Shown: positions 34,565-64,000 of the stretch, piece by piece | How positions within the stretch are numbered: the first letter of the stretch is position 1 | Layout: the number at the start of each line of letters is the position of its first letter | Source: Hirudinaria manillensis | Lineage: Eukaryota; Annelida; Clitellata; Hirudinida; Hirudinidae | Assembly: GCA_034509925.1 (NCBI GenBank) | Contig: CM067536.1 | Span: forward strand, 6,027,501 to 6,091,500 | Length of the DNA stretch: 64,000 nt | Direction of reading: 5' to 3' | Translations under genes and position numbers: made by a program | Notes under the pieces: generated by a model | Databases searched by the model: none | What the model saw: the letters and a program-made list of their open reading frames with translations, nothing else | Told to the model about the DNA's origin: nothing

Positions 34565-34639
34565 TTTTACTAAAGAATTCCGTGGAGAGGAACAACATTA
34601 TAAGTGATGTATATCTTGCAGCACCTTCTCGAGGGCGGA
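34565..34639 (+). pseudogene. Decayed U5 snRNA copy at the left edge of the array
   Basis: The 3' half of U5 is recognisable: TTTTACTAAAG, CCGTGGAGAGGAACAAC, and the terminal CTCGAGGGCGGA. It has substitutions in the 3' stem-loop and a deteriorated 5' half. It is followed by spacer similar to the 349-bp unit but diverged. Such decay is common at the edge of tandem arrays, where homogenising exchange is weakest. Confidence 0.75.
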
Positions 34640-34882
34640 TAAATAATGATAACGATAATGAATTGATCTTCGTTATGGCTGCGTGTATATCCAATATCTC
34701 ATTTTTGTATCTTACCGATAATCGCCCAAGCTGCCGATAGACGTTCAATAAAATTCTGGCAAAAATCTGAACCAAATCAGCGTGCTATTTAGGCTTCGTT
34801 GGTTGATTCCGGGTTTGACATTATATCACCGCCGCAAAGTATCGACGCGGTCTATAAATGGTCTGAAGAGCAGAATAACAGC

Positions 34883-35002
34883 AGCTCTGGTTTCTCTTCA
34901 AAGAAACGCGCAAATCTTTCGCCTTTTACTAAAGATTTCCGTGGAGAGGAACAACACTATGAGTGTTTGATGTATTTCTTGCAGCCCTCTCTCGAGGGCG
35001 GA
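34883..35002 (+). ncRNA. RNU5: U5 snRNA, copy 1
   Basis: First intact copy. It carries GAACAACAC instead of the array-typical GAACATCAC, the form closer to other animals, and has a slightly diverged promoter flank. Confidence 0.92.
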
Positions 35003-35136
35003 TAACAAATAATGATAATGAATTGATCTTACGTGTATATCCAATATCTCTTTTTGTAAATAACCGACACTCGCGCCATCTGCTGATAGACGTTCAATAA
35101 AATTCTGGCAAAAATCTGAACCAAACCACCCTGGAA

Positions 35137-35172
35137 TTTTCGTTGGTGGATTCCGGGTTTGACATTATATCA
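35137..35172 (+). repeat. 36-bp direct repeat, left flank of ZFAND module 1
   Basis: The sequence starting TTTTCGTTGGTGGATTCC and ending GACATTATATCA recurs at 36203-36238 with one mismatch. It is part of the U5 promoter-distal spacer, so the ZFAND module sits inside a duplicated piece of the U5 unit, as a long target-site duplication or a recombination junction would produce. Confidence 0.8.
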
Positions 35173-35396
35173 TATATAATGAATTATTCAAAAAATTTAT
35201 AAATAATTCTGTGGGATATAGGATCTTTTACAAAAATAATGAACAATAGGAATTAATTAAATTAAATGTTTTCAAATAATTCGGTTCGATTTATGATCTT
35301 TTTCAATGAAACAAATTATCGGGGACACGAAAACTTTTTGAGGGAAGAACATCAAATCAAATAATTCAAAAATTCAAATTTAATTCTGACACAGAA

Positions 35397-35930
35397 ATGG
35401 ACTCTGGCTCATCACAATTGTGCAGCAATGGATGCGGTTTTTTTGGTTCACAAGATTTCAAAGGCATGTGTTCAAAATGCTTCAAAACTACGATGAAGAA
35501 GGAGGTGGAACAATCACATGTAAACAAGCCAAAAGAGGTGCAAATGAATGTATTAAATTCATTTCAGCCAAATGAATTTATGAATTTTGAAATAACCGAT
35601 CCTAATGTTCAATCGGAGCCAAATCAAGTCAAGTTGGTGCCAATGCAAGTTAAAGAGAAGCCAATACAAGTCGGAGAAAAGCCAACGGTAGTCGCTGAGA
35701 AAAAATCGGAAGTGGCTGAGAAGCCGGAAAAGAAAAAAAGCAATAGATGCCATGTGTGCAAGAAGAAAGTTGGTCTGACTGCAATTGTTTGTCGATGCGG
35801 TGGAGTATACTGCGGTCTGCACCGCTACGTAGATACTCATGGCTGCACTTTCGACTATAAGGCTGTCGAAAGGGAAAAACTACGCAAAATGAACCCATTG
35901 ATTGAAGGCGAGAGAATCGAAAAACTATAA
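35397..35930 (+). CDS. ZFAND5/6: A20/AN1 zinc-finger protein, ZFAND5/6 type, array copy 1
   Basis: An intronless 177-residue protein. The A20 finger has C9, C13, C25 and C28. The linker is Lys/Glu/Pro-rich (about 72-114). The AN1 finger has C118, C121, C132, C134, C139, H142, H148 and C150, followed by a basic/acidic C-terminal tail. By family knowledge it binds ubiquitin through A20 and may serve proteasome-linked stress responses. The start is in a CACAGAAATGG context. The module has its own leader (TATAAATAATTCTG near 35200) and AATAAA signals near 35978 and 36000 downstream, so it looks like a self-contained transcription unit. This copy has VAEKKSEV in the linker where most others have VAKKKSEV, and its leader carries a short extra CAAAAAAT stretch. 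It differs from the 184-residue gene at 33832 mainly in the linker. Confidence 0.9.
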   Translation: MDSGSSQLCSNGCGFFGSQDFKGMCSKCFKTTMKKEVEQSHVNKPKEVQMNVLNSFQPNEFMNFEITDPNVQSEPNQVKLVPMQVKEKPIQVGEKPTVVAEKKSEVAEKPEKKKSNRCHVCKKKVGLTAIVCRCGGVYCGLHRYVDTHGCTFDYKAVEREKLRKMNPLIEGERIEKL

Positions 35931-36202
35931 AACATCCTTTTTATGCCAATATTGCTTTTTATGCTGAATTTATCGAATAAAGTAATTACAGAATCAAATA
36001 AAATATTAGCTTTATGTGGAGAACCTGGATTATGTCGAAACACAAAATGTCCCTTTCTAGGAGTTTCAAATGATTAATAAATAATATTAATTCCACCATC
36101 CTTCCAATTTTTCCTGTAAAAGTTGTATTTTAATTGTATCACAAATGTATCAAGGCAAAACATTTAATGACTATGTTAATACTGAAAAAATAAATATTTC
36201 AC

Positions 36203-36238
36203 TTTTCGTTGGTGGATTCCAGGTTTGACATTATATCA
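36203..36238 (+). repeat. 36-bp direct repeat, right flank of ZFAND module 1
   Basis: Partner of 35137-35172, with A for G at one position. It runs straight into the PSE of U5 copy 2 (CACCGCCACAAAG). Confidence 0.8.
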
Positions 36239-36292
36239 CCGCCACAAAGTATCGACGCGGTCTATAAATGGTCTGAAGAGCAGAATAACAGC

Positions 36293-36412
36293 AGCTCTGG
36301 TTTCTCTTCAAAGAAACGCGCAAATCTTTCGCCTTTTACTAAAGATTTCCGTGGAGAGGAACATCACTATGAGTGTTTGATGTATTTCTTGCAGCCCTCT
36401 CTCGAGGGCGGA
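36293..36412 (+). ncRNA. RNU5: U5 snRNA, copy 2
   Basis: Directly downstream of ZFAND module 1. The PSE variant is CCGCCA, and the distal promoter is replaced by ZFAND 3' flank. Confidence 0.92.
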
Positions 36413-36641
36413 TAATAAATAATGATAATGAATTGATCTTACGTGTATATCCAATATCTCTTTTTGTAAATAACCGACACTCGCGCCATCTGCCGATAGA
36501 CGTTCAATAAAATTCTGGCAAAAATCTGAACCAAAGGAGCATGCTATTTAGGCTTCTTTGGTGCATTCCGGGTTTGACATTATATCACCGGCGCAAAATA
36601 TCGACGCGGTCTATAAATGGTCTGAAGAGCAGAATAACAGC

Positions 36642-36761
36642 AGCTCTGGTTTCTCTTCAAAGAAACGCGCAAATCTTTCGCCTTTTACTAAAGATTTCCG
36701 TGGAGAGGAACATCACTATGAGTGTTTGATGTATTTCTTGCAGCCCTCTCTCGAGGGCGGA
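36642..36761 (+). ncRNA. RNU5: U5 snRNA, copy 3
   Basis: PSE variant CCGGCG with AAAATATC in place of AAAGTATC. Confidence 0.93.
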
Positions 36762-36933
36762 TAATAAATAATGATAATGAATTGATCTTACGTGTATATC
36801 CAATATCTCTTTTTGTAAATAACCGACACTCGCGCCATCTGCCGATAGACGTTCAATAAAATTCTGGCAAAAATCTGAACCAAAGGAGCATGCTATTTAG
36901 GCTTCTTTGGTGCATTCCGGGTTTGACATTATA

Positions 36934-36967
36934 TCACCGCCGCAAAGTATCGACGCGGTCTATAAAT
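36934..36967 (+). promoter_or_regulatory. U5 promoter: PSE-like element and TATA box (type unit)
   Basis: TCACCGCCGCAAAGTATC at -57 to -40 resembles the metazoan snRNA proximal sequence element, with a TCACC core and a downstream AAA. TATAAAT begins at -30 (36961) relative to the U5 start at 36991. The same pair precedes all 52 full-length copies, with small PSE variants (CCGCCG, CCGGCG, CCGCCA). The assignment rests on position and resemblance, not on binding data. Confidence 0.6.
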
Positions 36968-36990
36968 GGTCTGAAGAGCAGAATAACAGC

Positions 36991-37110
36991 AGCTCTGGTT
37001 TCTCTTCAAAGAAACGCGCAAATCTTTCGCCTTTTACTAAAGATTTCCGTGGAGAGGAACATCACTATGAGTGTTTGATGTATTTCTTGCAGCCCTCTCT
37101 CGAGGGCGGA
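36991..37110 (+). ncRNA. RNU5: U5 snRNA (type copy of the array)
   Basis: Spliceosomal U5 snRNA, which aligns exons through loop 1 within the U5 snRNP. The sequence begins AGCTCTGGTTTCTCTTC. Stem-loop 1 contains the stretch AAATCTTTCGCCTTTTACT, with the invariant loop at nt 38-48, then AAAGATTTCCGTGGAGAGGAAC, matching animal U5 very closely. After that come an Sm-like site (TATTTCTTG, nt 91-99) and a terminal hairpin GCCCTC-TCTC-GAGGGC. The length, about 120 nt, matches human U5 (about 116 nt). The 5' end is placed on the A before GCTCTGG, 30 bp after the TATA box. The internal TTTT argues for RNA polymerase II transcription. The Sm-like site is interrupted by a C, unlike the usual A-U(4-6)-G. 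Confidence 0.95.
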
Positions 37111-37339
37111 TAATAAATAATGATAATGAATTGATCTTACGTGTATATCCAATATCTCTTTTTGTAAATAACCGACACTCGCGCCATCTGCCGATAGACG
37201 TTCAATAAAATTCTGGCAAAAATCTGAACCAAAGGAGCATGCTATTTAGGCTTCTTTGGTGCATTCCGGGTTTGACATTATATCACCGGCGCAAAGTATC
37301 GACGCGGTCTATAAATGGTCTGAAGAGCAGAATAACAGC

Positions 37340-37459
37340 AGCTCTGGTTTCTCTTCAAAGAAACGCGCAAATCTTTCGCCTTTTACTAAAGATTTCCGTG
37401 GAGAGGAACATCACTATGAGTGTTTGATGTATTTCTTGCAGCCCTCTCTCGAGGGCGGA
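37340..37459 (+). ncRNA. RNU5: U5 snRNA, copy 5
   Basis: PSE variant CCGGCG; the snRNA is identical to the type copy (copy 4, 36991-37110). Confidence 0.95.
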
Positions 37460-37688
37460 TAATAAATAATGATAATGAATTGATCTTACGTGTATATCCA
37501 ATATCTCTTTTTGTAAATAACCGACACTCGCGCCATCTGCCGATAGACGTTCAATAAAATTCTGGCAAAAATCTGAACCAAAGGAGCATGCTATTTAGGC
37601 TTCTTTGGTGCATTCCGGGTTTGACATTATATCACCGCCGCAAAGTATCGACGCGGTCTATAAATGGTCTGAAGAGCAGAATAACAGC

Positions 37689-37808
37689 AGCTCTGGTTTC
37701 TCTTCAAAGAAACGCGCAAATCTTTCGCCTTTTACTAAAGATTTCCGTGGAGAGGAACATCACTATGAGTGTTTGATGTATTTCTTGCAGCCCTCTCTCG
37801 AGGGCGGA
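37689..37808 (+). ncRNA. RNU5: U5 snRNA, copy 6
   Basis: Standard promoter and snRNA sequence. Confidence 0.95.
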
Positions 37809-38037
37809 TAATAAATAATGATAATGAATTGATCTTACGTGTATATCCAATATCTCTTTTTGTAAATAACCGACACTCGCGCCATCTGCCGATAGACGTT
37901 CAATAAAATTCTGGCAAAAATCTGAACCAAAGGAGCATGCTATTTAGGCTTCTTTGGTGCAATCCGGGTTTGACATTATATCACCGCCGCAAAGTATCGA
38001 CGCGGTCTATAAATGGTCTGAAGAGCAGAATAACAGC

Positions 38038-38157
38038 AGCTCTGGTTTCTCTTCAAAGAAACGCGCAAATCTTTCGCCTTTTACTAAAGATTTCCGTGGA
38101 GAGGAACATCACTATGAGTGTTTGATGTATTTCTTGCAGCCCTCTCTCGAGGGCGGA
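38038..38157 (+). ncRNA. RNU5: U5 snRNA, copy 7
   Basis: Upstream flank reads GTGCAATCC instead of GTGCATTCC. Confidence 0.95.
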
Positions 38158-38386
38158 TAATAAATAATGATAATGAATTGATCTTACGTGTATATCCAAT
38201 ATCTCTTTTTGTAAATAACCGACACTCGCGCCATCTGCCGATAGACGTTCAATAAAATTCTGGCAAAAATCTGAACCAAAGGAGCATGCTATTTAGGCTT
38301 CTTTGGTGCATTCCGGGTTTGACATTATATCACCGCCGCAAAGTATCGACGCGGTCTATAAATGGTCTGAAGAGCAGAATAACAGC

Positions 38387-38506
38387 AGCTCTGGTTTCTC
38401 TTCAAAGAAACGCGCAAATCTTTCGCCTTTTACTAAAGATTTCCGTGGAGAGGAACATCACTATGAGTGTTTGATGTATTTCTTGCAGCCCTCTCTCGAG
38501 GGCGGA
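38387..38506 (+). ncRNA. RNU5: U5 snRNA, copy 8
   Basis: Standard sequence. Confidence 0.95.
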
Positions 38507-38735
38507 TAATAAATAATGATAATGAATTGATCTTACGTGTATATCCAATATCTCTTTTTGTAAATAACCGACACTCGCGCCATCTGCCGATAGACGTTCA
38601 ATAAAATTCTGGCAAAAATCTGAACCAAAGGAGCATGCTATTTAGGCTTCTTTGGTGCATTCCGGGTTTGACATTATATCACCGGCGCAAAGTATCGACG
38701 CGGTCTATAAATGGTCTGAAGAGCAGAATAACAGC

Positions 38736-38855
38736 AGCTCTGGTTTCTCTTCAAAGAAACGCGCAAATCTTTCGCCTTTTACTAAAGATTTCCGTGGAGA
38801 GGAACATCACTATGAGTGTTTGATGTATTTCTTGCAGCCCTCTCTCGAGGGCGGA
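38736..38855 (+). ncRNA. RNU5: U5 snRNA, copy 9
   Basis: PSE variant CCGGCG. Confidence 0.95.
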
Positions 38856-39084
38856 TAATAAATAATGATAATGAATTGATCTTACGTGTATATCCAATAT
38901 CTCTTTTTGTAAATAACCGACACTCGCGCCATCTGCCGATAGACGTTCAATAAAATTCTGGCAAAAATCTGAACCAAAGCAGCATGCTATTTAGGCTTCT
39001 TTGGTGCATTCCGGGTTTGACATTATATCACCGCCGCAAAGTATCGACGCGGTCTATAAATGGTCTGAAGAGCAGAATAACAGC

Positions 39085-39204
39085 AGCTCTGGTTTCTCTT
39101 CAAAGAAACGCGCAAATCTTTCGCCTTTTACTAAAGATTTCCGTGGAGAGGAACATCACTATGAGTGTTTGATGTATTTCTTGCAGCCCTCTCTCGAGGG
39201 CGGA
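39085..39204 (+). ncRNA. RNU5: U5 snRNA, copy 10
   Basis: Flank GCAGCATGC; standard PSE. Alternates with copy 11 as a dimer. Confidence 0.95.
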
Positions 39205-39433
39205 TAATAAATAATGATAATGAATTGATCTTACGTGTATATCCAATATCTCTTTTTGTAAATAACCGACACTCGCGCCATCTGCCGATAGACGTTCAAT
39301 AAAATTCTGGCAAAAATCTGAACCAAAGGAGCATGCTATTTAGGCTTCTTTGGTGCATTCCGGGTTTGACATTATATCACCGGCGCAAAGTATCGACGCG
39401 GTCTATAAATGGTCTGAAGAGCAGAATAACAGC

Positions 39434-39553
39434 AGCTCTGGTTTCTCTTCAAAGAAACGCGCAAATCTTTCGCCTTTTACTAAAGATTTCCGTGGAGAGG
39501 AACATCACTATGAGTGTTTGATGTATTTCTTGCAGCCCTCTCTCGAGGGCGGA
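39434..39553 (+). ncRNA. RNU5: U5 snRNA, copy 11
   Basis: PSE variant CCGGCG; flank GGAGCATGC. Confidence 0.95.
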
Positions 39554-39782
39554 TAATAAATAATGATAATGAATTGATCTTACGTGTATATCCAATATCT
39601 CTTTTTGTAAATAACCGACACTCGCGCCATCTGCCGATAGACGTTCAATAAAATTCTGGCAAAAATCTGAACCAAAGCAGCATGCTATTTAGGCTTCTTT
39701 GGTGCATTCCGGGTTTGACATTATATCACCGCCGCAAAGTATCGACGCGGTCTATAAATGGTCTGAAGAGCAGAATAACAGC

Positions 39783-39902
39783 AGCTCTGGTTTCTCTTCA
39801 AAGAAACGCGCAAATCTTTCGCCTTTTACTAAAGATTTCCGTGGAGAGGAACATCACTATGAGTGTTTGATGTATTTCTTGCAGCCCTCTCTCGAGGGCG
39901 GA
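39783..39902 (+). ncRNA. RNU5: U5 snRNA, copy 12
   Basis: Followed by a 6-bp spacer expansion (extra GATAAT); first unit of a four-unit higher-order repeat. Confidence 0.95.
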
Positions 39903-40137
39903 TAATAAATAATGATAATGATAATGAATTGATCTTACGTGTATATCCAATATCTCTTTTTGTAAATAACCGACACTCGCGCCATCTGCCGATAGACGTT
40001 CAATAAAATTCTGGCAAAAATCTGAACCAAAGGAGCATGCTATTTAGGCTTCTTTGGTGCGATCCGGGTTTGACATTATATCACCGCCGCAAAGTATCGA
40101 CGCGGTCTATAAATGGTCTGAAGAGCAGAATAACAGC

Positions 40138-40257
40138 AGCTCTGGTTTCTCTTCAAAGAAACGCGCAAATCTTTCGCCTTTTACTAAAGATTTCCGTGGA
40201 GAGGAACATCACTATGAGTGTTTGATGTATTTCTTGCAGCCCTCTCTCGAGGGCGGA
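40138..40257 (+). ncRNA. RNU5: U5 snRNA, copy 13
   Basis: Upstream flank GTGCGATCC; second unit of the higher-order repeat. Confidence 0.95.
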
Positions 40258-40486
40258 TAATAAATAATGATAATGAATTGATCTTACGTGTATATCCAAT
40301 ATCTCTTTTTGTAAATAACCGACACTCGCGCCATCTGCCGATAGACGTTCAATAAAATTCTGGCAAAAATCTGAACCAAAGCAGCATGCTATTTAGGCTT
40401 CTTTGGTGCATTCCGGGTTTGACATTATATCACCGCCGCAAAGTATCGACGCGGTCTATAAATGGTCTGAAGAGCAGAATAACAGC

Positions 40487-40606
40487 AGCTCTGGTTTCTC
40501 TTCAAAGAAACGCGCAAATCTTTCGCCTTTTACTAAAGATTTCCGTGGAGAGGAACATCACTATGAGTGTTTGATGTATTTCTTGCAGCCCTCTCTCGAG
40601 GGCGGA
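40487..40606 (+). ncRNA. RNU5: U5 snRNA, copy 14
   Basis: Third unit of the higher-order repeat; standard sequence. Confidence 0.95.
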
Positions 40607-40835
40607 TAATAAATAATGATAATGAATTGATCTTACGTGTATATCCAATATCTCTTTTTGTAAATAACCGACACTCGCGCCATCTGCCGATAGACGTTCA
40701 GTAAAATTCTGGCAAAAATCTGAACCAAAGGAGCATGCTATTTAGGCTTCTTTGGTGCATTCCGGGTTTGACATTATATCACCGGCGCAAAGTATCGACG
40801 CGGTCTATAAATGGTCTGAAGAGCAGAATAACAGC

Positions 40836-40955
40836 AGCTCTGGTTTCTCTTCAAAGAAACGCGCAAATCTTTCGCCTTTTACTAAAGATTTCCGTGGAGA
40901 GGAACATCACTATGAGTGTTTGATGTATTTCTTGCAGCCCTCTCTCGAGGGCGGA
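40836..40955 (+). ncRNA. RNU5: U5 snRNA, copy 15
   Basis: PSE variant CCGGCG; the spacer upstream has a private CAGTAAAATTC substitution near 40700. Confidence 0.95.
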
Positions 40956-41184
40956 TAATAAATAATGATAATGAATTGATCTTACGTGTATATCCAATAT
41001 CTCTTTTTGTAAATAACCGACACTCGCGCCATCTGCCGATAGACGTTCAATAAAATTCTGGCAAAAATCTGAACCAAAGCAGCATGCTATTTAGGCTTCT
41101 TTGGTGCATTCCGGGTTTGACATTATATCACCGCCGCAAAGTATCGACGCGGTCTATAAATGGTCTGAAGAGCAGAATAACAGC

Positions 41185-41304
41185 AGCTCTGGTTTCTCTT
41201 CAAAGAAACGCGCAAATCTTTCGCCTTTTACTAAAGATTTCCGTGGAGAGGAACATCACTATGAGTGTTTGATGTATTTCTTGCAGCCCTCTCTCGAGGG
41301 CGGA
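41185..41304 (+). ncRNA. RNU5: U5 snRNA, copy 16
   Basis: Repeats copy 12, including the 6-bp spacer expansion after it. Confidence 0.95.
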
Positions 41305-41539
41305 TAATAAATAATGATAATGATAATGAATTGATCTTACGTGTATATCCAATATCTCTTTTTGTAAATAACCGACACTCGCGCCATCTGCCGATAGACG
41401 TTCAATAAAATTCTGGCAAAAATCTGAACCAAAGGAGCATGCTATTTAGGCTTCTTTGGTGCGATCCGGGTTTGACATTATATCACCGCCGCAAAGTATC
41501 GACGCGGTCTATAAATGGTCTGAAGAGCAGAATAACAGC

Positions 41540-41659
41540 AGCTCTGGTTTCTCTTCAAAGAAACGCGCAAATCTTTCGCCTTTTACTAAAGATTTCCGTG
41601 GAGAGGAACATCACTATGAGTGTTTGATGTATTTCTTGCAGCCCTCTCTCGAGGGCGGA
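41540..41659 (+). ncRNA. RNU5: U5 snRNA, copy 17
   Basis: Repeats copy 13 (flank GTGCGATCC). Confidence 0.95.
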
Positions 41660-41888
41660 TAATAAATAATGATAATGAATTGATCTTACGTGTATATCCA
41701 ATATCTCTTTTTGTAAATAACCGACACTCGCGCCATCTGCCGATAGACGTTCAATAAAATTCTGGCAAAAATCTGAACCAAAGCAGCATGCTATTTAGGC
41801 TTCTTTGGTGCATTCCGGGTTTGACATTATATCACCGCCGCAAAGTATCGACGCGGTCTATAAATGGTCTGAAGAGCAGAATAACAGC

Positions 41889-42008
41889 AGCTCTGGTTTC
41901 TCTTCAAAGAAACGCGCAAATCTTTCGCCTTTTACTAAAGATTTCCGTGGAGAGGAACATCACTATGAGTGTTTGATGTATTTCTTGCAGCCCTCTCTCG
42001 AGGGCGGA
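41889..42008 (+). ncRNA. RNU5: U5 snRNA, copy 18
   Basis: Repeats copy 14. Confidence 0.95.
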
Positions 42009-42237
42009 TAATAAATAATGATAATGAATTGATCTTACGTGTATATCCAATATCTCTTTTTGTAAATAACCGACACTCGCGCCATCTGCCGATAGACGTT
42101 CAATAAAATTCTGGCAAAAATCTGAACCAAAGGAGCATGCTATTTAGGCTTCTTTGGTGCATTCCGGGTTTGACATTATATCACCGGCGCAAAGTATCGA
42201 CGCGGTCTATAAATGGTCTGAAGAGCAGAATAACAGC

Positions 42238-42357
42238 AGCTCTGGTTTCTCTTCAAAGAAACGCGCAAATCTTTCGCCTTTTACTAAAGATTTCCGTGGA
42301 GAGGAACAACACTATGAGTGTTTGATGTATTTCTTGCAGCCCTCTCTCGAGGGCGGA
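42238..42357 (+). ncRNA. RNU5: U5 snRNA, copy 19
   Basis: Repeats copy 15 in its promoter (CCGGCG) but carries the GAACAACAC form of the RNA. Confidence 0.95.
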
Positions 42358-42586
42358 TAATAAATAATGATAATGAATTGATCTTACGTGTATATCCAAT
42401 ATCTCTTTTTGTAAATAACCGACACTCGCGCCATCTGCCGATAGACGTTCAATAAAATTCTGGCAAAAATCTGAACCAAAGCAGCATGCTATTTAGGCTT
42501 CTTTGGTGCATTCCGGGTTTGACATTATATCACCGCCGCAAAGTATCGACGCGGTCTATAAATGGTCTGAAGAGCAGAATAACAGC

Positions 42587-42706
42587 AGCTCTGGTTTCTC
42601 TTCAAAGAAACGCGCAAATCTTTCGCCTTTTACTAAAGATTTCCGTGGAGAGGAACATCACTATGAGTGTTTGATGTATTTCTTGCAGCCCTCTCTCGAG
42701 GGCGGA
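42587..42706 (+). ncRNA. RNU5: U5 snRNA, copy 20
   Basis: Standard sequence. Confidence 0.95.
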
Positions 42707-42935
42707 TAATAAATAATGATAATGAATTGATCTTACGTGTATATCCAATATCTCTTTTTGTAAATAACCGACACTCGCGCCATCTGCCGATAGACGTTCA
42801 ATAAAATTCTGGCTAAAATCTGAACCAAAGGAGCATGCTATTTAGGCTTCTTTGGTGCAATCCGGGTTTGACATTATATCACCGCCGCAAAGTATCGACG
42901 CGGTCTATAAATGGTCTGAAGAGCAGAATAACAGC

Positions 42936-43055
42936 AGCTCTGGTTTCTCTTCAAAGAAACGCGCAAATCTTTCGCCTTTTACTAAAGATTTCCGTGGAGA
43001 GGAACATCACTATGAGTGTTTGATGTATTTCTTGCAGCCCTCTCTCGAGGGCGGA
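42936..43055 (+). ncRNA. RNU5: U5 snRNA, copy 21
   Basis: Upstream GGCTAAAATC and GTGCAATCC, shared only with copy 22. Confidence 0.95.
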
Positions 43056-43284
43056 TAATAAATAATGATAATGAATTGATCTTACGTGTATATCCAATAT
43101 CTCTTTTTGTAAATAACCGACACTCGCGCCATCTGCCGATAGACGTTCAATAAAATTCTGGCTAAAATCTGAACCAAAGGAGCATGCTATTTAGGCTTCT
43201 TTGGTGCAATCCGGGTTTGACATTATATCACCGCCGCAAAGTATCGACGCGGTCTATAAATGGTCTGAAGAGCAGAATAACAGC

Positions 43285-43404
43285 AGCTCTGGTTTCTCTT
43301 CAAAGAAACGCGCAAATCTTTCGCCTTTTACTAAAGATTTCCGTGGAGAGGAACATCACTATGAGTGTTTGATGTATTTCTTGCAGCCCTCTCTCGAGGG
43401 CGGA
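43285..43404 (+). ncRNA. RNU5: U5 snRNA, copy 22
   Basis: Tandem duplicate of copy 21 by its two private spacer changes. Confidence 0.95.
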
Positions 43405-43633
43405 TAATAAATAATGATAATGAATTGATCTTACGTGTATATCCAATATCTCTTTTTGTAAATAACCGACACTCGCGCCATCTGCCGATAGACGTTCAAT
43501 AAAATTCTGGCAAAAATCTGAACCAAAGCAGCATGCTATTTAGGCTTCTTTGGTGCATTCCGGGTTTGACATTATATCACCGCCGCAAAGTATCGACGCG
43601 GTCTATAAATGGTCTGAAGAGCAGAATAACAGC

Positions 43634-43753
43634 AGCTCTGGTTTCTCTTCAAAGAAACGCGCAAATCTTTCGCCTTTTACTAAAGATTTCCGTGGAGAGG
43701 AACATCACTATGAGTGTTTGATGTATTTCTTGCAGCCCTCTCTCGAGGGCGGA
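43634..43753 (+). ncRNA. RNU5: U5 snRNA, copy 23
   Basis: Standard sequence; flank GCAGCATGC. Confidence 0.95.
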
Positions 43754-43982
43754 TAATAAATAATGATAATGAATTGATCTTACGTGTATATCCAATATCT
43801 CTTTTTGTAAATAACCGACACTCGCGCCATCTGCCGATAGACGTTCAATAAAATTCTGGCAAAAATCTGAACCAAAGCAGCGTGCTATTTAGGCTTCTTT
43901 GGTGCATTCCGGGTTTGACATTATATCACCGCCGCAAAGTATCGACGCGGTCTATAAATGGTCTGAAGAGCAGAATAACAGC

Positions 43983-55173: not shown

Positions 55174-55535
55174 AACATCCTTTTTATGCCAATATTGCTT
55201 TTTATGCTGAATTTATCGAATAAAGTAATTACAGAATCAAATAAAATATTAGCTTTATGTGGAGAACCTGGATTATGTCGAAACACAAAATGTCCCTTTC
55301 TAGGAGTTTCAAATGATTAATAAATAATATTAATTCCACCATCCTTCCAATTTTTCCTGTAAAAGTTGTATTTTAATTGTATCACAAATGTATCAAGGCA
55401 AAACATTTAATGACTATGTTAATACTGAAAAAATAAATATTTCACTTTTCGTTGGTGGATTCCAGGTTTGACATTATATCACCGCCACAAAGTATCGACG
55501 CGGTCTATAAATGGTCTGAAGAGCAGAATAACAGC

Positions 55536-55655
55536 AGCTCTGGTTTCTCTTCAAAGAAACGCGCAAATCTTTCGCCTTTTACTAAAGATTTCCGTGGAGA
55601 GGAACATCACTATGAGTGTTTGATGTATTTCTTGCAGCCCTCTCTCGAGGGCGGA
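55536..55655 (+). ncRNA. RNU5: U5 snRNA, copy 42
   Basis: First of a pair after ZFAND module 6; PSE CCGCCA. Confidence 0.93.
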
Positions 55656-55884
55656 TAATAAATAATGATAATGAATTGATCTTACGTGTATATCCAATAT
55701 CTCTTTTTGTAAATAACCGACACTCGCGCCATCTGCCGATAGACGTTCAATAAAATTCTGGCAAAAATCTGAACCAAAGCAGCGTGCTATTTAGGCTTCT
55801 TTGGTGCATTCCGGGTTTGACATTATATCACCGGCGCAAAGTATCGACGCGGTCTATAAATGGTCTGAAGAGCAGAATAACAGC

Positions 55885-56004
55885 AGCTCTGGTTTCTCTT
55901 CAAAGAAACGCGCAAATCTTTCGCCTTTTACTAAAGATTTCCGTGGAGAGGAACATCACTATGAGTGTTTGATGTATTTCTTGCAGCCCTCTCTCGAGGG
56001 CGGA
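55885..56004 (+). ncRNA. RNU5: U5 snRNA, copy 43
   Basis: Second of the pair; PSE CCGGCG. Confidence 0.95.
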
Positions 56005-56393
56005 TAATAAATAATGATAATGAATTGATCTTACGTGTATATCCAATATCTCTTTTTGTAAATAACCGACACTCGCGCCATCTGCCGATAGACGTTCAAT
56101 AAAATTCTGGCAAAAATCTGAACCAAAGCAGCATGCTATTTAGGCTTCTTTGCTGCATTCCGGGTTTGACATTATATCATATATAATGAATTATTTATAA
56201 ATAATTCTGTGGGATATAGGATCTTTTACAAAAATAATGAACAATAGGAATTAATTAAATTAAATGTTTTCAAATAATTCGGTTCGATTTATGATCTTTT
56301 CAATGAAACAAATTATCGGGGACACGAAAACTTTTTGAGGGAAGAACATCAAATCAAATAATTCAAAAATTCAAATTTAATTCTGACACAGAA

Positions 56394-56928
56394 ATGGACT
56401 CTGGCTCATCACAATTGTGCAGCAATGGATGCGGTTTTTTTTGGTTCACAAGATTTCAAAGGCATGTGTTCAAAATGCTTCAAAACTACGATGAAGAAGG
56501 AGGTGGAACAATCACATGTAAACAAGCCAAAAGAGGTGCAAATGAATGTATTAAATTCATTTCAGCCAAATGAATTTATGAATTTTGAAATAACCGATCC
56601 TAATGTTCAATCGGAGCCAAATCAAGTCAAGTTGGTGCCAATGCAAGTTAAAGAGAAGCCAATACAAGTCGGAGAAAAGCCAACGGTAGTCGCTAAGAAA
56701 AAATCGGAAGTGGCTGAGAAGCCGGAAAAGAAAAAAAGCAATAGATGCCATGTGTGCAAGAAGAAAGTTGGTCTGACTGCAATTGTTTGTCGATGCGGTG
56801 GAGTATACTGCGGTCTGCACCGCTACGTAGATACTCATGGCTGCACTTTCGACTATAAGGCTGTCGAAAGGGAAAAACTACGCAAAATGAACCCATTGAT
56901 TGAAGGCGAGAGAATCGAAAAACTATAA
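56394..56928 (+). pseudogene. ZFAND5/6: ZFAND5/6-type gene, array copy 7, frameshifted
   Basis: The usual start is at 56394, but a run of seven T becomes eight after GATGCGG near 56434. This shifts the frame inside the A20 finger and leads to early termination. An internal ATG at 56425 would restart the normal frame and give 167 residues, without the first two A20 cysteines, so ubiquitin binding through A20 would be lost while AN1 remains. The leader of the same module also lacks one T in a homopolymer (ATGATCTTTTCAATG). Two homopolymer indels in one copy may mean relaxed constraint or residual sequencing error. Confidence 0.8.
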
Positions 56929-57290
56929 AACATCCTTTTTATGCCAATATTGCTTTTTATGCTGAATTTATCGAATAAAGTAATTACAGAATCAAATAAA
57001 ATATTAGCTTTATGTGGAGAACCTGGATTATGTCGAAACACAAAATGTCCCTTTCTAGGAGTTTCAAATGATTAATAAATAATATTAATTCCACCATCCT
57101 TCCAATTTTTCCTGTAAAAGTTGTATTTTAATTGTATCACAAATGTATCAAGGCAAAACATTTAATGACTATGTTAATACTGAAAAAATAAATATTTCAC
57201 TTTTCGTTGGTGGATTCCAGGTTTGACATTATATCACCGCCACAAAGTATCGACGCGGTCTATAAATGGTCTGAAGAGCAGAATAACAGC

Positions 57291-57410
57291 AGCTCTGGTT
57301 TCTCTTCAAAGAAACGCGCAAATCTTTCGCCTTTTACTAAAGATTTCCGTGGAGAGGAACATCACTATGAGTGTTTGATGTATTTCTTGCAGCCCTCTCT
57401 CGAGGGCGGA
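57291..57410 (+). ncRNA. RNU5: U5 snRNA, copy 44
   Basis: First of a pair after the frameshifted ZFAND module 7; PSE CCGCCA. Confidence 0.93.
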
Positions 57411-57639
57411 TAATAAATAATGATAATGAATTGATCTTACGTGTATATCCAATATCTCTTTTTGTAAATAACCGACACTCGCGCCATCTGCCGATAGACG
57501 TTCAATAAAATTCTGGCAAAAATCTGAACCAAAGCAGCGTGCTATTTAGGCTTCTTTGGTGCATTCCGGGTTTGACATTATATCACCGGCGCAAAGTATC
57601 GACGCGGTCTATAAATGGTCTGAAGAGCAGAATAACAGC

Positions 57640-57759
57640 AGCTCTGGTTTCTCTTCAAAGAAACGCGCAAATCTTTCGCCTTTTACTAAAGATTTCCGTG
57701 GAGAGGAACATCACTATGAGTGTTTGATGTATTTCTTGCAGCCCTCTCTCGAGGGCGGA
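57640..57759 (+). ncRNA. RNU5: U5 snRNA, copy 45
   Basis: Second of the pair; PSE CCGGCG. Confidence 0.95.
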
Positions 57760-58149
57760 TAATAAATAATGATAATGAATTGATCTTACGTGTATATCCA
57801 ATATCTCTTTTTGTAAATAACCGACACTCGCGCCATCTGCCGATAGACGTTCAATAAAATTCTGGCAAAAATCTGAACCAAAGCAGCATGCTATTTAGGC
57901 TTCTTTGGTGCATTCCGGGTTTGACATTATATCATATATAATGAATTATTTATAAATAATTCTGTGGGATATAGGATCTTTTACAAAAATAATGAACAAT
58001 AGGAATTAATTAAATTAAATGTTTTCAAATAATTCGGTTCGATTTATGATCTTTTTCAATGAAACAAATTATCGGGGACACGAAAACTTTTTGAGGGAAG
58101 AACATCAAATCAAATAATTCAAAAATTCAAATTTAATTCTGACACAGAA

Positions 58150-58683
58150 ATGGACTCTGGCTCATCACAATTGTGCAGCAATGGATGCGGTTTTTTTGGT
58201 TCACAAGATTTCAAAGGCATGTGTTCAAAATGCTTCAAAACTACGATGAAGAAGGAGGTGGAACAATCACATGTAAACAAGCCAAAAGAGGTGCAAATGA
58301 ATGTATTAAATTCATTTCAGCCAAATGAATTTATGAATTTTGAAATAACCGATCCTAATGTTCAATCGGAGCCAAATCAAGTCAAGTTGGTGCCAATGCA
58401 AGTTAAAGAGAAGCCAATACAAGTCGGAGAAAAGCCAACGGTAGTCGCTAAGAAAAAATCGGAAGTGGCTGAGAAGCCGGAAAAGAAAAAAAGCAATAGA
58501 TGCCATGTGTGCAAGAAGAAAGTTGGTCTGACTGCAATTGTTTGTCGATGCGGTGGAGTATACTGCGGTCTGCACCGCTACGTAGATACTCATGGCTGCA
58601 CTTTCGACTATAAGGCTGTCGAAAGGGAAAAACTACGCAAAATGAACCCATTGATTGAAGGCGAGAGAATCGAAAAACTATAA
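58150..58683 (+). CDS. ZFAND5/6: ZFAND5/6-type gene, array copy 8
   Basis: Intact 177-residue frame directly following the frameshifted copy 7 unit, in the third 1,755-bp higher-order repeat. Confidence 0.9.
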   Translation: MDSGSSQLCSNGCGFFGSQDFKGMCSKCFKTTMKKEVEQSHVNKPKEVQMNVLNSFQPNEFMNFEITDPNVQSEPNQVKLVPMQVKEKPIQVGEKPTVVAKKKSEVAEKPEKKKSNRCHVCKKKVGLTAIVCRCGGVYCGLHRYVDTHGCTFDYKAVEREKLRKMNPLIEGERIEKL

Positions 58684-59045
58684 AACATCCTTTTTATGCC
58701 AATATTGCTTTTTATGCTGAATTTATCGAATAAAGTAATTACAGAATCAAATAAAATATTAGCTTTATGTGGAGAACCTGGATTATGTCGAAACACAAAA
58801 TGTCCCTTTCTAGGAGTTTCAAATGATTAATAAATAATATTAATTCCACCATCCTTCCAATTTTTCCTGTAAAAGTTGTATTTTAATTGTATCACAAATG
58901 TATCAAGGCAAAACATTTAATGACTATGTTAATACTGAAAAAATAAATATTTCACTTTTCGTTGGTGGATTCCAGGTTTGACATTATATCACCGCCACAA
59001 AGTATCGACGCGGTCTATAAATGGTCTGAAGAGCAGAATAACAGC

Positions 59046-59165
59046 AGCTCTGGTTTCTCTTCAAAGAAACGCGCAAATCTTTCGCCTTTTACTAAAGATT
59101 TCCGTGGAGAGGAACATCACTATGAGTGTTTGATGTATTTCTTGCAGCCCTCTCTCGAGGGCGGA
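59046..59165 (+). ncRNA. RNU5: U5 snRNA, copy 46
   Basis: First of a pair after ZFAND module 8; PSE CCGCCA. Confidence 0.93.
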
Positions 59166-59394
59166 TAATAAATAATGATAATGAATTGATCTTACGTGTA
59201 TATCCAATATCTCTTTTTGTAAATAACCGACACTCGCGCCATCTGCCGATAGACGTTCAATAAAATTCTGGCAAAAATCTGAACCAAAGCAGCGTGCTAT
59301 TTAGGCTTCTTTGGTGCATTCCGGGTTTGACATTATATCACCGGCGCAAAGTATCGACGCGGTCTATAAATGGTCTGAAGAGCAGAATAACAGC

Positions 59395-59514
59395 AGCTCT
59401 GGTTTCTCTTCAAAGAAACGCGCAAATCTTTCGCCTTTTACTAAAGATTTCCGTGGAGAGGAACATCACTATGAGTGTTTGATGTATTTCTTGCAGCCCT
59501 CTCTCGAGGGCGGA
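59395..59514 (+). ncRNA. RNU5: U5 snRNA, copy 47
   Basis: Second of the pair; PSE CCGGCG. Confidence 0.95.
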
Positions 59515-59904
59515 TAATAAATAATGATAATGAATTGATCTTACGTGTATATCCAATATCTCTTTTTGTAAATAACCGACACTCGCGCCATCTGCCGATA
59601 GACGTTCAATAAAATTCTGGCAAAAATCTGAACCAAAGCAGCATGCTATTTAGGCTTCTTTGGTGCATTCCGGGTTTGACATTATATCATATATAATGAA
59701 TTATTTATAAATAATTCTGTGGGATATAGGATCTTTTACAAAAATAATGAACAATAGGAATTAATTAAATTAAATGTTTTCAAATAATTCGGTTCGATTT
59801 ATGATCTTTTTCAATGAAACAAATTATCGGGGACACGAAAACTTTTTGAGGGAAGAACATCAAATCAAATAATTCAAAAATTCAAATTTAATTCTGACAC
59901 AGAA

Positions 59905-60438
59905 ATGGACTCTGGCTCATCACAATTGTGCAGCAATGGATGCGGTTTTTTTGGTTCACAAGATTTCAAAGGCATGTGTTCAAAATGCTTCAAAACTACG
60001 ATGAAGAAGGAGGTGGAACAATCACATGTAAACAAGCCAAAAGAGGTGCAAATGAATGTATTAAATTCATTTCAGCCAAATGAATTTATGAATTTTGAAA
60101 TAACCGATCCTAATGTTCAATCGGAGCCAAATCAAGTCAAGTTGGTGCCAATGCAAGTTAAAGAGAAGCCAATACAAGTCGGAGAAAAGCCAACGGTAGT
60201 CGCTAAGAAAAAATCGGAAGTGGCTGAGAAGCCGGAAAAGAAAAAAAGCAATAGATGCCATGTGTGCAAGAAGAAAGTTGGTCTGACTGCAATTGTTTGT
60301 CGATGCGGTGGAGTATACTGCGGTCTGCACCGCTACGTAGATACTCATGGCTGCACTTTCGACTATAAGGCAGTCGAAAGGGAAAAACTACGCAAAATGA
60401 ACCCATTGATTGAAGGCGAGAGAATCGAAAAACTATAA
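59905..60438 (+). CDS. ZFAND5/6: ZFAND5/6-type gene, array copy 9
   Basis: Intact 177-residue frame. It shares the silent GCA in DYKAVERE with array copy 2, 14 kb away, which indicates exchange between distant units. Confidence 0.9.
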   Translation: MDSGSSQLCSNGCGFFGSQDFKGMCSKCFKTTMKKEVEQSHVNKPKEVQMNVLNSFQPNEFMNFEITDPNVQSEPNQVKLVPMQVKEKPIQVGEKPTVVAKKKSEVAEKPEKKKSNRCHVCKKKVGLTAIVCRCGGVYCGLHRYVDTHGCTFDYKAVEREKLRKMNPLIEGERIEKL

Positions 60439-60800
60439 AACATCCTTTTTATGCCAATATTGCTTTTTATGCTGAATTTATCGAATAAAGTAATTACAGA
60501 ATCAAATAAAATATTAGCTTTATGTGGAGAACCTGGATTATGTCGAAACACAAAATGTCCCTTTCTAGGAGTTTCAAATGATTAATAAATAATATTAATT
60601 CCACCATCCTTCCAATTTTTCCTGTAAAAGTTGTATTTTAATTGTATCACAAATGTATCAAGGCAAAACATTTAATGACTATGTTAATACTGAAAAAATA
60701 AATATTTCACTTTTCGTTGGTGGATTCCAGGTTTGACATTATATCACCGCCACAAAGTATCGACGCGGTCTATAAATGGTCTGAAGAGCAGAATAACAGC

Positions 60801-60920
60801 AGCTCTGGTTTCTCTTCAAAGAAACGCGCAAATCTTTCGCCTTTTACTAAAGATTTCCGTGGAGAGGAACATCACTATGAGTGTTTGATGTATTTCTTGC
60901 AGCCCTCTCTCGAGGGCGGA
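60801..60920 (+). ncRNA. RNU5: U5 snRNA, copy 48
   Basis: Single U5 between ZFAND modules 9 and 10; PSE CCGCCA. Confidence 0.93.
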
Positions 60921-61310
60921 TAATAAATAATGATAATGAATTGATCTTACGTGTATATCCAATATCTCTTTTTGTAAATAACCGACACTCGCGCCATCTG
61001 CCGATAGACGTTCAATAAAATTCTGGCAAAAATCTGAACCAAAGCAGCATGCTATTTAGGCTTCTTTGCTGCATTCCGGGTTTGACATTATATCATATAT
61101 AATGAATTATTTATAAATAATTCTGTGGGATATAGGATCTTTTACAAAAATAATGAACAATAGGAATTAATTAAATTAAATGTTTTCAAATAATTCGGTT
61201 CGATTTATGATCTTTTTCAATGAAACAAATTATCGGGGACACGAAAACTTTTTGAGGGAAGAACATCAAATCAAATAATTCAAAAATTCAAATTTAATTC
61301 TGACACAGAA

Positions 61311-61844
61311 ATGGACTCTGGCTCATCACAATTGTGCAGCAATGGATGCGGTTTTTTTGGTTCACAAGATTTCAAAGGCATGTGTTCAAAATGCTTCAAA
61401 ACTACGATGAAGAAGGAGGTGGAACAATCACATGTAAACAAGCCAAAAGAGGTGCAAATGAATGTATTAAATTCATTTCAGCCAAATGAATTTATGAATT
61501 TTGAAATAACCGATCCTAATGTTCAATCGGAGCCAAATCAAGTCAAGTTGGTGCCAATGCAAGTTAAAGAGAAGCCAATACAAGTCGGAGAAAAGCCAAC
61601 GGTAGTCGCTGAGAAAAAATCGGAAGTGGCTGAGAAGCCGGAAAAGAAAAAAAGCAATAGATGCCATGTGTGCAAGAAGAAAGTTGGTCTGACTGCAATT
61701 GTTTGTCGATGCGGTGGAGTATACTGCGGTCTGCACCGCTACGTAGATACTCATGGCTGCACTTTCGACTATAAGGCTGTCGAAAGGGAAAAACTACGCA
61801 AAATGAACCCATTGATTGAAGGCGAGAGAATCGAAAAACTATAA
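61311..61844 (+). CDS. ZFAND5/6: ZFAND5/6-type gene, array copy 10
   Basis: Intact 177-residue frame with the VAEKKSEV linker, otherwise seen only in copy 1. The 3' flank has private changes (CTTTCCAGGAG, GTTATATTTT, GTATGACAAATG), so this module is among the most diverged in its non-coding part. Confidence 0.9.
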   Translation: MDSGSSQLCSNGCGFFGSQDFKGMCSKCFKTTMKKEVEQSHVNKPKEVQMNVLNSFQPNEFMNFEITDPNVQSEPNQVKLVPMQVKEKPIQVGEKPTVVAEKKSEVAEKPEKKKSNRCHVCKKKVGLTAIVCRCGGVYCGLHRYVDTHGCTFDYKAVEREKLRKMNPLIEGERIEKL

Positions 61845-62206
61845 AACATCCTTTTTATGCCAATATTGCTTTTTATGCTGAATTTATCGAATAAAGTAAT
61901 TACAGAATCAAATAAAATATTAGCTTTATGTGGAGAACCTGGATTATGTCGAAACACAAAATGTCCCTTTCCAGGAGTTTCAAATGATTAATAAATAATA
62001 TTAATTCCACCATCCTTCCAATTTTTCCTGTAAAAGTTATATTTTAATTGTATGACAAATGTATCAAGGCAAAACATTTAATGACTATGTTAATACTGAA
62101 AAAATAAATATTTCACTTTTCGTTGGTGGATTCCAGGTTTGACATTATATCACCGCCGCAAAGTATCGACGCGGTCTATAAATGGTCTGAAGAGCAGAAT
62201 AACAGC

Positions 62207-62326
62207 AGCTCTGGTTTCTCTTCAAAGAAACGCGCAAATCATTCGCCTTTTACTAAAGATTTCCGTGGAGAGGAACAACACTATGAGTGTTTGATGTATT
62301 TCTTGCAGCCCTCTCTCGAGGGCGGA
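62207..62326 (+). ncRNA. RNU5: U5 snRNA, copy 49 (variant)
   Basis: After ZFAND module 10. The loop-1 stem has CAAATCATTCGCC in place of CAAATCTTTCGCC, and the RNA has the GAACAACAC form. The following spacer is also diverged (CTCGTTTTTCTATATTACC). It may be impaired. Confidence 0.85.
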
Positions 62327-62556
62327 TAATAAATAATGATAATGAATTGATCTTACGTGTATATCCAATATCTCGTTTTTCTATATTACCGATACTCGCG
62401 CCATCTGCCGATAGACGTTCAATAAAATTCTGGCAAAAATCTGAACCAAAGCAGCGTGCTATTTAGGCTTCTTTGGTGCATTCCGGGTTTGACATTATAT
62501 CACCGGCGCAAAGTATCGACGCGGTCTATAAATGGTCTGAAGAGCAGAATAACAGC

Positions 62557-62676
62557 AGCTCTGGTTTCTCTTCAAAGAAACGCGCAAATCTTTCGCCTTT
62601 TACTAAAGATTTCCGTGGAGAGGAACATCACTATGAGTGTTTGATGTATTTCTTGCAGCCCTCTCTCGAGGGCGGA
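62557..62676 (+). ncRNA. RNU5: U5 snRNA, copy 50
   Basis: PSE CCGGCG; standard RNA. Confidence 0.95.
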
Positions 62677-62905
62677 TAATAAATAATGATAATGAATTGA
62701 TCTTACGTGTATATCCAATATCTCTTTTTGTAAATAACCGACACTCGCGCCATCTGCCGATAGACGTTCAATAAAATTCTGGCAAAAATCTGAACCAAAG
62801 CAGCGTGCTATTTAGGCTTCTTTGGTGCATTCCGGGTTTGACATTATATCACCGCCGCAAAGTATCGACGCGGTCTATAAATGGTCTGAAGAGCAGAATA
62901 ACAGC

Positions 62906-63025
62906 AGCTCTGGTTTCTCTTCAAAGAAACGCGCAAATCTTTCGCCTTTTACTAAAGATTTCCGTGGAGAGGAACATCACTATGAGTGTTTGATGTATTT
63001 CTTGCAGCCCTCTCTCGAGGGCGGA
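62906..63025 (+). ncRNA. RNU5: U5 snRNA, copy 51
   Basis: Standard sequence. Confidence 0.95.
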
Positions 63026-63254
63026 TAATAAATAATGATAATGAATTGATCTTACGTGTATATCCAATATCTCTTTTTGTAAATAACCGACACTCGCGCC
63101 ATCTGCCGATAGACGTTCAATAAAATTCTGGCAAAAATCTGAACCAAAGCAGCGTGCTATTTAGGCTTCTTTGGTGCAATCCGGGTTTGACATTATATCA
63201 CCGCCGCAAAGTATCGACGCGGTCTATAAATGGTCTGAAGAGCAGAATAACAGC

Positions 63255-63374
63255 AGCTCTGGTTTCTCTTCAAAGAAACGCGCAAATCTTTCGCCTTTTA
63301 CTAAAGATTTCCGTGGAGAGGAACATCACTATGAGTGTTTGATGTATTTCTTGCAGCCCTCTCTCGAGGGCGGA
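63255..63374 (+). ncRNA. RNU5: U5 snRNA, copy 52
   Basis: Upstream flank GTGCAATCC; last full U5 in the window, before ZFAND module 11. Confidence 0.95.
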
Positions 63375-63764
63375 TAATAAATAATGATAATGAATTGATC
63401 TTACGTGTATATCCAATATCTCTTTTTGTAAATAACCGACACTCGCGCCATCTGCCGATAGACGTTCAATAAAATTCTGGCAAAAATCTGAACCAAAGCA
63501 GCGTGCTATTTAGGCTTCTTTGCTGCATTCCGGGTTTGACATTATATCATATATAATGAATTATTTATAAATAATTCTGTGGGATATAGGATCTTTTACA
63601 AAAATAATGAACAATAGGAATTAATTAAATTAAATGTTTTCAAATAATTCGGTTCGATTTATGATCTTTTTCAATGAAACAAATTATCGGGGACACGAAA
63701 ACTTTTTGAGGGAAGAACATCAAATCAAATAATTCAAAAATTCAAATTTAATTCTGACACAGAA

Positions 63765-64000
63765 ATGGACTCTGGCTCATCACAATTGTGCAGCAATGGA
63801 TGCGGTTTTTTTGGTTCACAAGATTTCAAAGGCATGTGTTCAAAATGCTTCAAAACTACGATGAAGAAGGAGGTGGAACAATCACATGTAAACAAGCCAA
63901 AAGAGGTGCAAATGAATGTATTAAATTCATTTCAGCCAAATGAATTTATGAATTTTGAAATAACCGATCCTAATGTTCAATCGGAGCCAAATCAAGTCAA
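63765..64000 (+). CDS. ZFAND5/6: ZFAND5/6-type gene, array copy 11 (cut by window end)
   Basis: The first 78 codons are present and open, including the complete A20 finger. The AN1 half lies beyond the window. It shows that the composite array continues. Confidence 0.88.
   Translation, partial: MDSGSSQLCSNGCGFFGSQDFKGMCSKCFKTTMKKEVEQSHVNKPKEVQMNVLNSFQPNEFMNFEITDPNVQSEPNQV

What the first reader, a model, noticed from the sequence alone, without database searches (positions are those of the whole stretch)
34565..64000. Composite tandem array joining U5 snRNA genes with A20/AN1 zinc-finger protein genes
Seen: 52 full U5 units of 349 bp with 11 co-amplified single-exon ZFAND5/6-type modules, all on one strand, nearly identical, and extending past the window. 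Known: snRNA arrays occur (for example human RNU2), and ZFAND5/6 proteins act in ubiquitin/proteasome stress biology. A repeat that amplifies a core spliceosomal RNA together with a ubiquitin-binding protein gene is, to my knowledge, not a described arrangement. Inference: the ZFAND gene may be hitchhiking on U5 amplification, or both products may be dosage-selected together.
Basis: partly seen in the sequence, partly recalled or inferred. Interest (0 to 1): 0.92.

Follow-up and report, generated by a model that had tools for sequence, protein, structure and literature searches.

The report
Leech U5 snRNA–ZFAND tandem gene array
In a leech genome, the gene for a core splicing RNA (U5) is repeated well over a hundred times in a row, and an intact-looking gene for a protein resembling a ubiquitin/proteasome helper is copied along inside the array, most likely as a passenger of the RNA gene's amplification.

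Summary
The window (contig C11 of a 148 Mb genome; COX1 97% identical to the leech Poecilobdella javanica) holds 52 full U5 genes and 11 co-amplified ZFAND modules, the last cut by the window end. The array is 91.8 kb on one strand: 144 full-length U5 genes and 36 ZFAND matches, 31 of 36 with an intact frame. It contains a retroelement and an inserted U1 gene, and a 52 x 490 bp tRNA-Ser(CGA) array follows it.
U5 is not special: U1, U2 and U4 also form tandem arrays elsewhere; U6 gave only three hits. Distinct dispersed copies of U1, U4 and U5 exist; one dispersed U5 differs from the array type by paired stem changes.
Best explanation: unequal exchange amplified a 349/350 bp U5 unit, and an intronless ZFAND5/6-type gene lodged between U5 promoter copies was carried along. 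The frame is mostly kept with signs of weak selection; hitchhiking is favoured over dosage selection, neither proven. Linked snRNA arrays are known; U5 with a ZFAND gene I did not find in print. Expression and related species' DNA could not be examined.

The parts
33832..34386 (+). Edge ZFAND gene, 184 aa, diverged; intact frame
   Evidence: homology to array copies is confined to start-2 to stop
34565..34637 (+). Diverged 5'-truncated U5 remnant
   Evidence: matches U5 positions 43-119 at 87%
34882..35000 (+). First full U5 gene
   Evidence: 88.3 bits
35137..35172 (+). 36-bp copy of the U5 promoter at the 5' boundary of the first ZFAND module; stops inside a PSE-like motif
   Evidence: 35 of 36 identical to 36203-36238; motif
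35173..36202 (+). First ZFAND module, unique part
35397..35930 (+). ZFAND coding region, 177 aa, single exon; AATAAA 45 bp after the stop
36203..36238 (+). 36-bp promoter copy at the 3' boundary of the module, continuing into a complete U5 promoter
36292..45490 (+). Run of 27 U5 genes without ZFAND
45883..46416 (+). ZFAND copy, intact
47289..47822 (+). ZFAND copy, intact
48695..49228 (+). ZFAND copy, intact
51840..52373 (+). ZFAND copy, intact
54640..55173 (+). ZFAND copy, intact
56394..56928 (+). ZFAND copy, frame-shifted in a run of T
58150..58683 (+). ZFAND copy, intact
59905..60438 (+). ZFAND copy, intact
61311..61844 (+). ZFAND copy, intact
63765..64000 (+). ZFAND copy cut by the window end (intact to 64298 in window-equivalent coordinates)
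46778..63372 (+). 24 further full U5 genes interspersed with ZFAND modules

Best explanation
A leech genome keeps tandem, homogenised arrays of Sm-class spliceosomal RNA genes (U1, U2, U4, U5); for U1, U4 and U5 dispersed copies were seen as well. On contig C11 a 349/350-bp unit (promoter, U5 gene, 3' flank) was multiplied by unequal crossing-over and gene conversion. An intronless A20/AN1 (ZFAND5/6-type) gene with its own 3' flank and a poly(A) signal had become lodged between two copies of the U5 promoter segment, and composite units (one ZFAND plus one, two or more U5, e.g. 1406 and 1755 bp) were multiplied too. SHOWN: anatomy, copy numbers in the assembly, homogenisation, the other arrays, mostly intact ZFAND frames. 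INFERRED: the array supplies U5 RNA in bulk; amplification was driven by U5 dosage or by array recombination as such; ZFAND is a passenger that still encodes a protein, under weak selection copy by copy.
For: U5 outnumbers ZFAND 144 to 36 and forms pure runs of 27 and 28, while ZFAND never occurs twice without a U5 between. Left and right parts carry separately homogenised variants (349 against 350 bp; of 14 distinct U5 sequences two make up 64 and 53 copies), the mark of local unequal exchange. U5 genes vary less than the mid spacer (pi 7.9 against 33 per kb over 109 units). U1, U2 and U4 arrays exist; the one short piece read from each holds no frame longer than 101 aa. Indel sites are about as frequent in the ZFAND frame as in its flanks (5 and 5 in 34 modules). 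The module's 3' flank was found only here: 35 of 35 hits lie in this array.
Against: 31 of 36 ZFAND matches keep an intact frame. SNP density in the coding part is 9 in 534 against 18 in 475 in the flanks (Fisher p = 0.0496; 7 in 534, p = 0.014, without two sites next to an indel in one frame-shifted copy). Edge against array dN/dS is 0.37 (NG86) or 0.50 (YN00). These point to some purifying selection on the protein. No expression data. Some coding indels lie in homopolymers and may be sequencing errors, which would make the frame look less protected than it is. The U5 promoter part varies nearly as much as the mid spacer (pi 30 against 33 per kb).
Confidence: 0.58

Rival explanations
1. Both products are dosage-selected: many ZFAND copies give high levels of a proteasome/ubiquitin-linked stress protein when U5 is also needed in bulk.
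For: 31 of 36 intact frames; fewer SNPs in the coding part than in the flanks; edge/array dN/dS 0.37-0.50; both zinc fingers above the Pfam cut-off in the edge and array proteins tested; the best solved relatives are ZFAND5 chains, 7qxw and 9bui.
Against: Indel sites about equal in frame and flanks; of 9 segregating coding sites 6 change the protein (4 of 7 without the two doubtful ones) against 80% of random single changes, a weak deficit; the U5-derived promoter copy 5' of the module stops inside the PSE-like motif, so no complete U5 promoter serves ZFAND.
Confidence: 0.27
2. Assembly artefact: the U5-ZFAND junctions or the copy number are false.
For: Highly repetitive; no reads examined; some frame-shifts sit in homopolymers.
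Against: No N in the 144 kb read; 33 identical 5' junctions; two diverged sub-arrays, an old diverged edge copy of both genes, and private insertions (retroelement, U1) inside the array. The copy number could still be off.
Confidence: 0.07
3. The array belongs to an oocyte/early-embryo snRNA set, with the dispersed copies as the general set. Compatible with the best explanation, not exclusive of it.
For: Array and dispersed types differ in sequence for U5 (three stem pairs changed on both sides) and U1, and by Rfam score for U4 (106.6 against up to 116.6 bits). Developmental isoform switching of U1, U2, U4 and U5 in several animals, including Xenopus and sea urchin U1, is reported in PMC4291461 (passages).
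Against: No expression data; only one complete and one partial dispersed U5 could be read; dispersed U2 copies were not seen (46 of 46 scored hits lie on C2); U6 gave three hits and no array. The link between tandem arrays and embryonic expression in other animals is recalled.
Confidence: 0.33

Closest known systems
Tandem snRNA gene arrays (e.g. human RNU2; recalled)
   Same: Head-to-tail homogenised units each holding one snRNA gene
   Different: Here U5, 144 full-length copies, with a protein-coding module in a subset of units
Linked tandem arrays of 5S rDNA with snRNA genes (Acropora U1/U2-5S; U1, U2 and U5 with 5S in fish as cited there; PMC8167085, passages)
   Same: snRNA genes co-amplified with another gene family in one tandem unit
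   Different: The partner there is 5S rDNA; here it is a single-exon A20/AN1 protein gene, and the 47 scored 5S hits lie on C6
Euglena U3-U5 gene linkages (PMC2784804, passages)
   Same: U5 repeatedly linked to another gene
   Different: Convergent U3 snoRNA partner, several families, not shown as a tandem array
ZFAND5/ZFAND6 (AN1-type zinc finger protein 5/6)
   Same: N-terminal A20 and C-terminal AN1 finger; about 31-40% identity to named animal ZFAND5/6 proteins
   Different: Single exon and multi-copy inside an snRNA array; the closest hit is an unnamed 158-aa protein at 57-60%

Membership tests
U5 snRNA | Covariance-model match with the conserved loop and both stems | tested here: met
   (52 of 52 above gathering score); 146 of 149 pair cells standard in 5 distinct rows (98.0%)
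U5 snRNA | Sm site between stem 1 and the 3' hairpin | tested here: inconclusive
   AUUUCUUG in the array copies and the dispersed copy aligned, one change from the consensus AUUUUUUG (consensus recalled)
U5 snRNA | Transcribed and built into snRNPs | not testable with these tools
   no RNA data
ZFAND5/6 (A20-AN1) proteins | A20 finger followed by AN1 finger | tested here: met
   PF01754 and PF01428 above cut-off in P0001 and P0002
ZFAND5/6 (A20-AN1) proteins | Orthology to animal ZFAND5/6 rather than paralogy | not tested
   no tree built; another AN1 exon on C12 is 44% identical to the array protein
ZFAND5/6 (A20-AN1) proteins | Ubiquitin/proteasome binding | not testable with these tools
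   needs binding assays
Linked tandem multigene array | Same-strand head-to-tail units holding both genes, homogenised | tested here: met
Embryonic-type snRNA array | Sequence distinct from dispersed copies | tested here: met
   U5; U1
Embryonic-type snRNA array | Oocyte/embryo-biased expression | not testable with these tools
   no stage-resolved RNA data

The most novel reading that the evidence does not exclude
The leech carries a second, tandem-arrayed set of Sm-class snRNA genes (U1, U2, U4, U5) used for bulk maternal/embryonic supply, and the U5 array has recruited an A20/AN1 proteasome-helper gene whose dosage rises and falls with it, coupling splicing capacity to protein turnover.
Probability: 0.12. 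Interest if true: 0.8.

Novelty: new variant of a known kind. Interest (0 to 1): 0.52.

Why it matters
snRNA arrays are known, but a cellular protein-coding gene homogenised inside one gives a built-in test of whether passengers of concerted evolution stay functional. If the array/dispersed split in U1, U4 and U5 is developmental, leeches would offer a tractable system for the open question of what snRNA isoforms are for. It is also a warning that gene-family expansion statistics may count passengers of ncRNA arrays as adaptive expansions.

Tried and rejected
Insect origin (my first guess from size and base composition) was rejected by COX1. A U5 promoter driving ZFAND was considered and judged unlikely, because the promoter copy 5' of the module ends inside the PSE-like motif; that motif comes from a small home-made search without a shuffled control, in which five of the seven promoters used aligned at -56 to -59 while U2 and one U1 did not. 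A recent retrocopy of the edge gene was considered: homology between edge and array copies stops at the start and stop codons although silent divergence is only 0.13-0.16; a retrocopy should share untranslated sequence, so old paralogues with coding-only gene conversion look likelier, but this stays unexplained. Linkage to 5S rDNA was not seen: the 47 scored 5S hits lie on C6, and none of the Rfam hits in the window or in L009-L016 is 5S. Literature: ten answered searches, nothing seen on U5 with ZFAND; one search returned no paper. Counts from the genome search are lower bounds (e.g. 47 of 12892 U5 candidates scored), so a U6 array is not formally excluded (3 matches among 47 scored of 13108 candidates). 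Whether the U1, U2 or U4 arrays hold protein genes was checked on one piece each, of 2.5, 2.7 and 1.2 kb. The neighbouring genes upstream were not identified with confidence (one search gave only weak Pfam hits below cut-off for the four window pieces tried).
Full report
1. What is there. The window holds 52 complete U5 genes on the + strand, all above the Rfam gathering score, in a 349-bp period. Between them sit copies of a single-exon gene for a 177-aa protein with an A20 finger and an AN1 finger.

2. Whole locus. The window is C11:6027501-6091500 of a 148.4-Mb assembly in 23 contigs. Reading on, the array ends at window-equivalent 125591: 91.8 kb. It has 144 full-length U5 copies in 14 distinct sequences, the two commonest with 64 and 53 copies. 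Rfam gives 52 in the window and 91 in L009-L016; one of the 91 is a 63-bit copy with a deletion, and two full copies straddle the edges of fetched pieces, which accounts for 144. There are 36 ZFAND matches, 31 with an intact frame; the 30 intact copies other than the edge copy fall into 7 distinct DNA sequences. The number of U5 genes after each ZFAND runs from 1 to 28. Of 143 steps between successive U5 genes, 109 are plain units (69 of 349, 36 of 350, 2 of 355, 2 of 343 bp) and 34 are longer; 32 of these are 1404-1417 bp, one ZFAND module each, and two (2296 and 3797 bp) also hold insertions.

3. Inside and at the right edge. A reverse-transcriptase element (852-aa frame, RVT_1) lies in one ZFAND module at about 84.7-87.5 k. 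At about 122.3-123.0 k a stretch with a U1 gene is inserted; that U1 is identical to the array-type U1 of C8. At 125.6 k the last U5 is cut, and some 120 bp further on a tRNA-Ser(CGA) array begins: 52 copies of a tRNA segment at exactly 490 bp. ARAGORN whole genes in three 10-kb pieces; the first copy is only a partial Rfam match.

4. Module anatomy. At the first module the boundaries are 36-bp repeats of the U5 promoter segment, 35 of 36 identical. The 5' copy stops after ATATCA, inside a PSE-like motif that a small motif search placed at -56 to -59 in five of seven snRNA promoters used (array U5, array U4, three U1) but elsewhere in U2 and one other U1; no control was run. The U5 gene after the module keeps its full upstream sequence. 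Thirty-three identical 5' junctions and 132 uncut promoter strings were counted in the 224 kb read. The coding part is followed by AATAAA 45 bp after the stop. The module's 3' flank was found nowhere else in the genome search: 35 of 35 hits are in this array.

5. Selection on ZFAND. The edge copy and the module that is split and truncated were left out, leaving 34 modules. Segregating sites are 9 in 534 coding and 18 in 475 flanking bases (Fisher p = 0.0496); leaving out two sites beside an indel in one frame-shifted copy gives 7 in 534 (p = 0.014). Sites within an array are not independent, so these p-values are optimistic. Of the nine coding sites three are silent and six change the protein, against 80% changing for random single changes. 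Indels touch five coding and five flanking sites; the first 22 bases of the module, where many copies have an 8-bp difference, were outside this count. The edge copy and the array differ by dN 0.058, dS 0.160 (NG86, ratio 0.37; YN00 0.50). So selection has probably acted on the protein over the longer term, while I see no strong protection of individual array copies. Homology between edge and array copies spans the coding sequence and stops there, which I cannot fully explain.

6. Genome context. U1 (C8, about 607 bp), U2 (C2, about 1204 bp) and U4 (C5, about 365 bp) also form tandem arrays, while U6 gives three matches; 5S hits lie on C6. The pieces of the U1, U2 and U4 arrays that I could read contain no open frame above 101 aa. 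Dispersed copies exist for U1 and U4, and a pattern search found four U5 loops with T instead of C before AAATC, three on C13 and one on C21. One complete C13 U5, read against four distinct array sequences, has three stem pairs changed on both sides (5 of 500 shuffles reach this; none of six slid versions has any), as expected for two functional variants; with five distinct rows this is suggestive, not strong. Three pair cells are non-standard, two of them in the dispersed copy's 3' hairpin. Array-type RNAs score lower on Rfam than the best dispersed ones for U1 (about 130 against 157) and U4 (106.6 against 116.6), but higher for U5 (79-89 against 75), so score gives no uniform picture.

7. 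Organism. COX1 from C23 (15,581 bp) is 97% identical to Poecilobdella javanica and 96% to Hirudinaria manillensis. H. manillensis is reported with 13 pseudo-chromosomes and 157.5 Mb (PMC10087013, passages). No tool names the species.

8. Relatives of the protein. The best hit is an unnamed 158-aa protein (P0004, 57-60%), then P0005; named animal ZFAND5/6 proteins follow at about 31-40%. P0004 and P0005 come from two contigs and, by eye in the alignment, resemble each other more than the array protein; I take them to be another leech's, by inference only. No DNA around them could be fetched, so whether U5 sits beside them is unknown. In this genome the protein search found, outside the array, three weaker AN1 matches (C12, C13, C3; 42-49%).

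9. Verdict. Real, ordinary in mechanism (tandem amplification and homogenisation), unusual in content. ZFAND is more likely a passenger that remains coding than the object of selection. Papers: passages of PMC4291461, PMC2784804, PMC8167085, PMC10671345 and PMC10087013 were seen; all others only as search listings. After the recount I lowered the best explanation from 0.60 to 0.58 and the embryonic-set rival from 0.35 to 0.33, and raised the dosage rival from 0.25 to 0.27.

Noticed in passing
G000:C8:561564-588551; C2:12504767-12582929; C5:1431996-1461188: Tandem arrays of U1 (about 607 bp), U2 (about 1204 bp) and U4 (about 365 bp) genes; U6 gave three hits only
   Followed up: partly
L015, L016, L037 (window-equivalent 125.7-151.1 k): 52 tRNA-Ser(CGA) segments at an exact 490-bp period directly after the U5 array
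   Followed up: partly
L014:8696-8860: U1 gene of the C8 array type inserted in the U5 array on another contig, suggesting exchange between arrays
   Followed up: partly
L011:1021-3579 (-): Reverse-transcriptase element with an 852-aa open frame inside a ZFAND module
   Followed up: partly
G000:C9:3026446-3027786: COX1-like stretch scoring the same as the mitochondrial contig C23: a nuclear mitochondrial insertion or an assembly join
   Followed up: no
window 33830-34386 vs 35395-35930: Edge and array ZFAND share sequence from start to stop codon and nothing found in the flanks, with low silent divergence
   Followed up: partly
G000:C6:6120088-6139823: 5S rRNA cluster with copies ranging from 120 down to 39 bits, many apparently degenerate
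   Followed up: no
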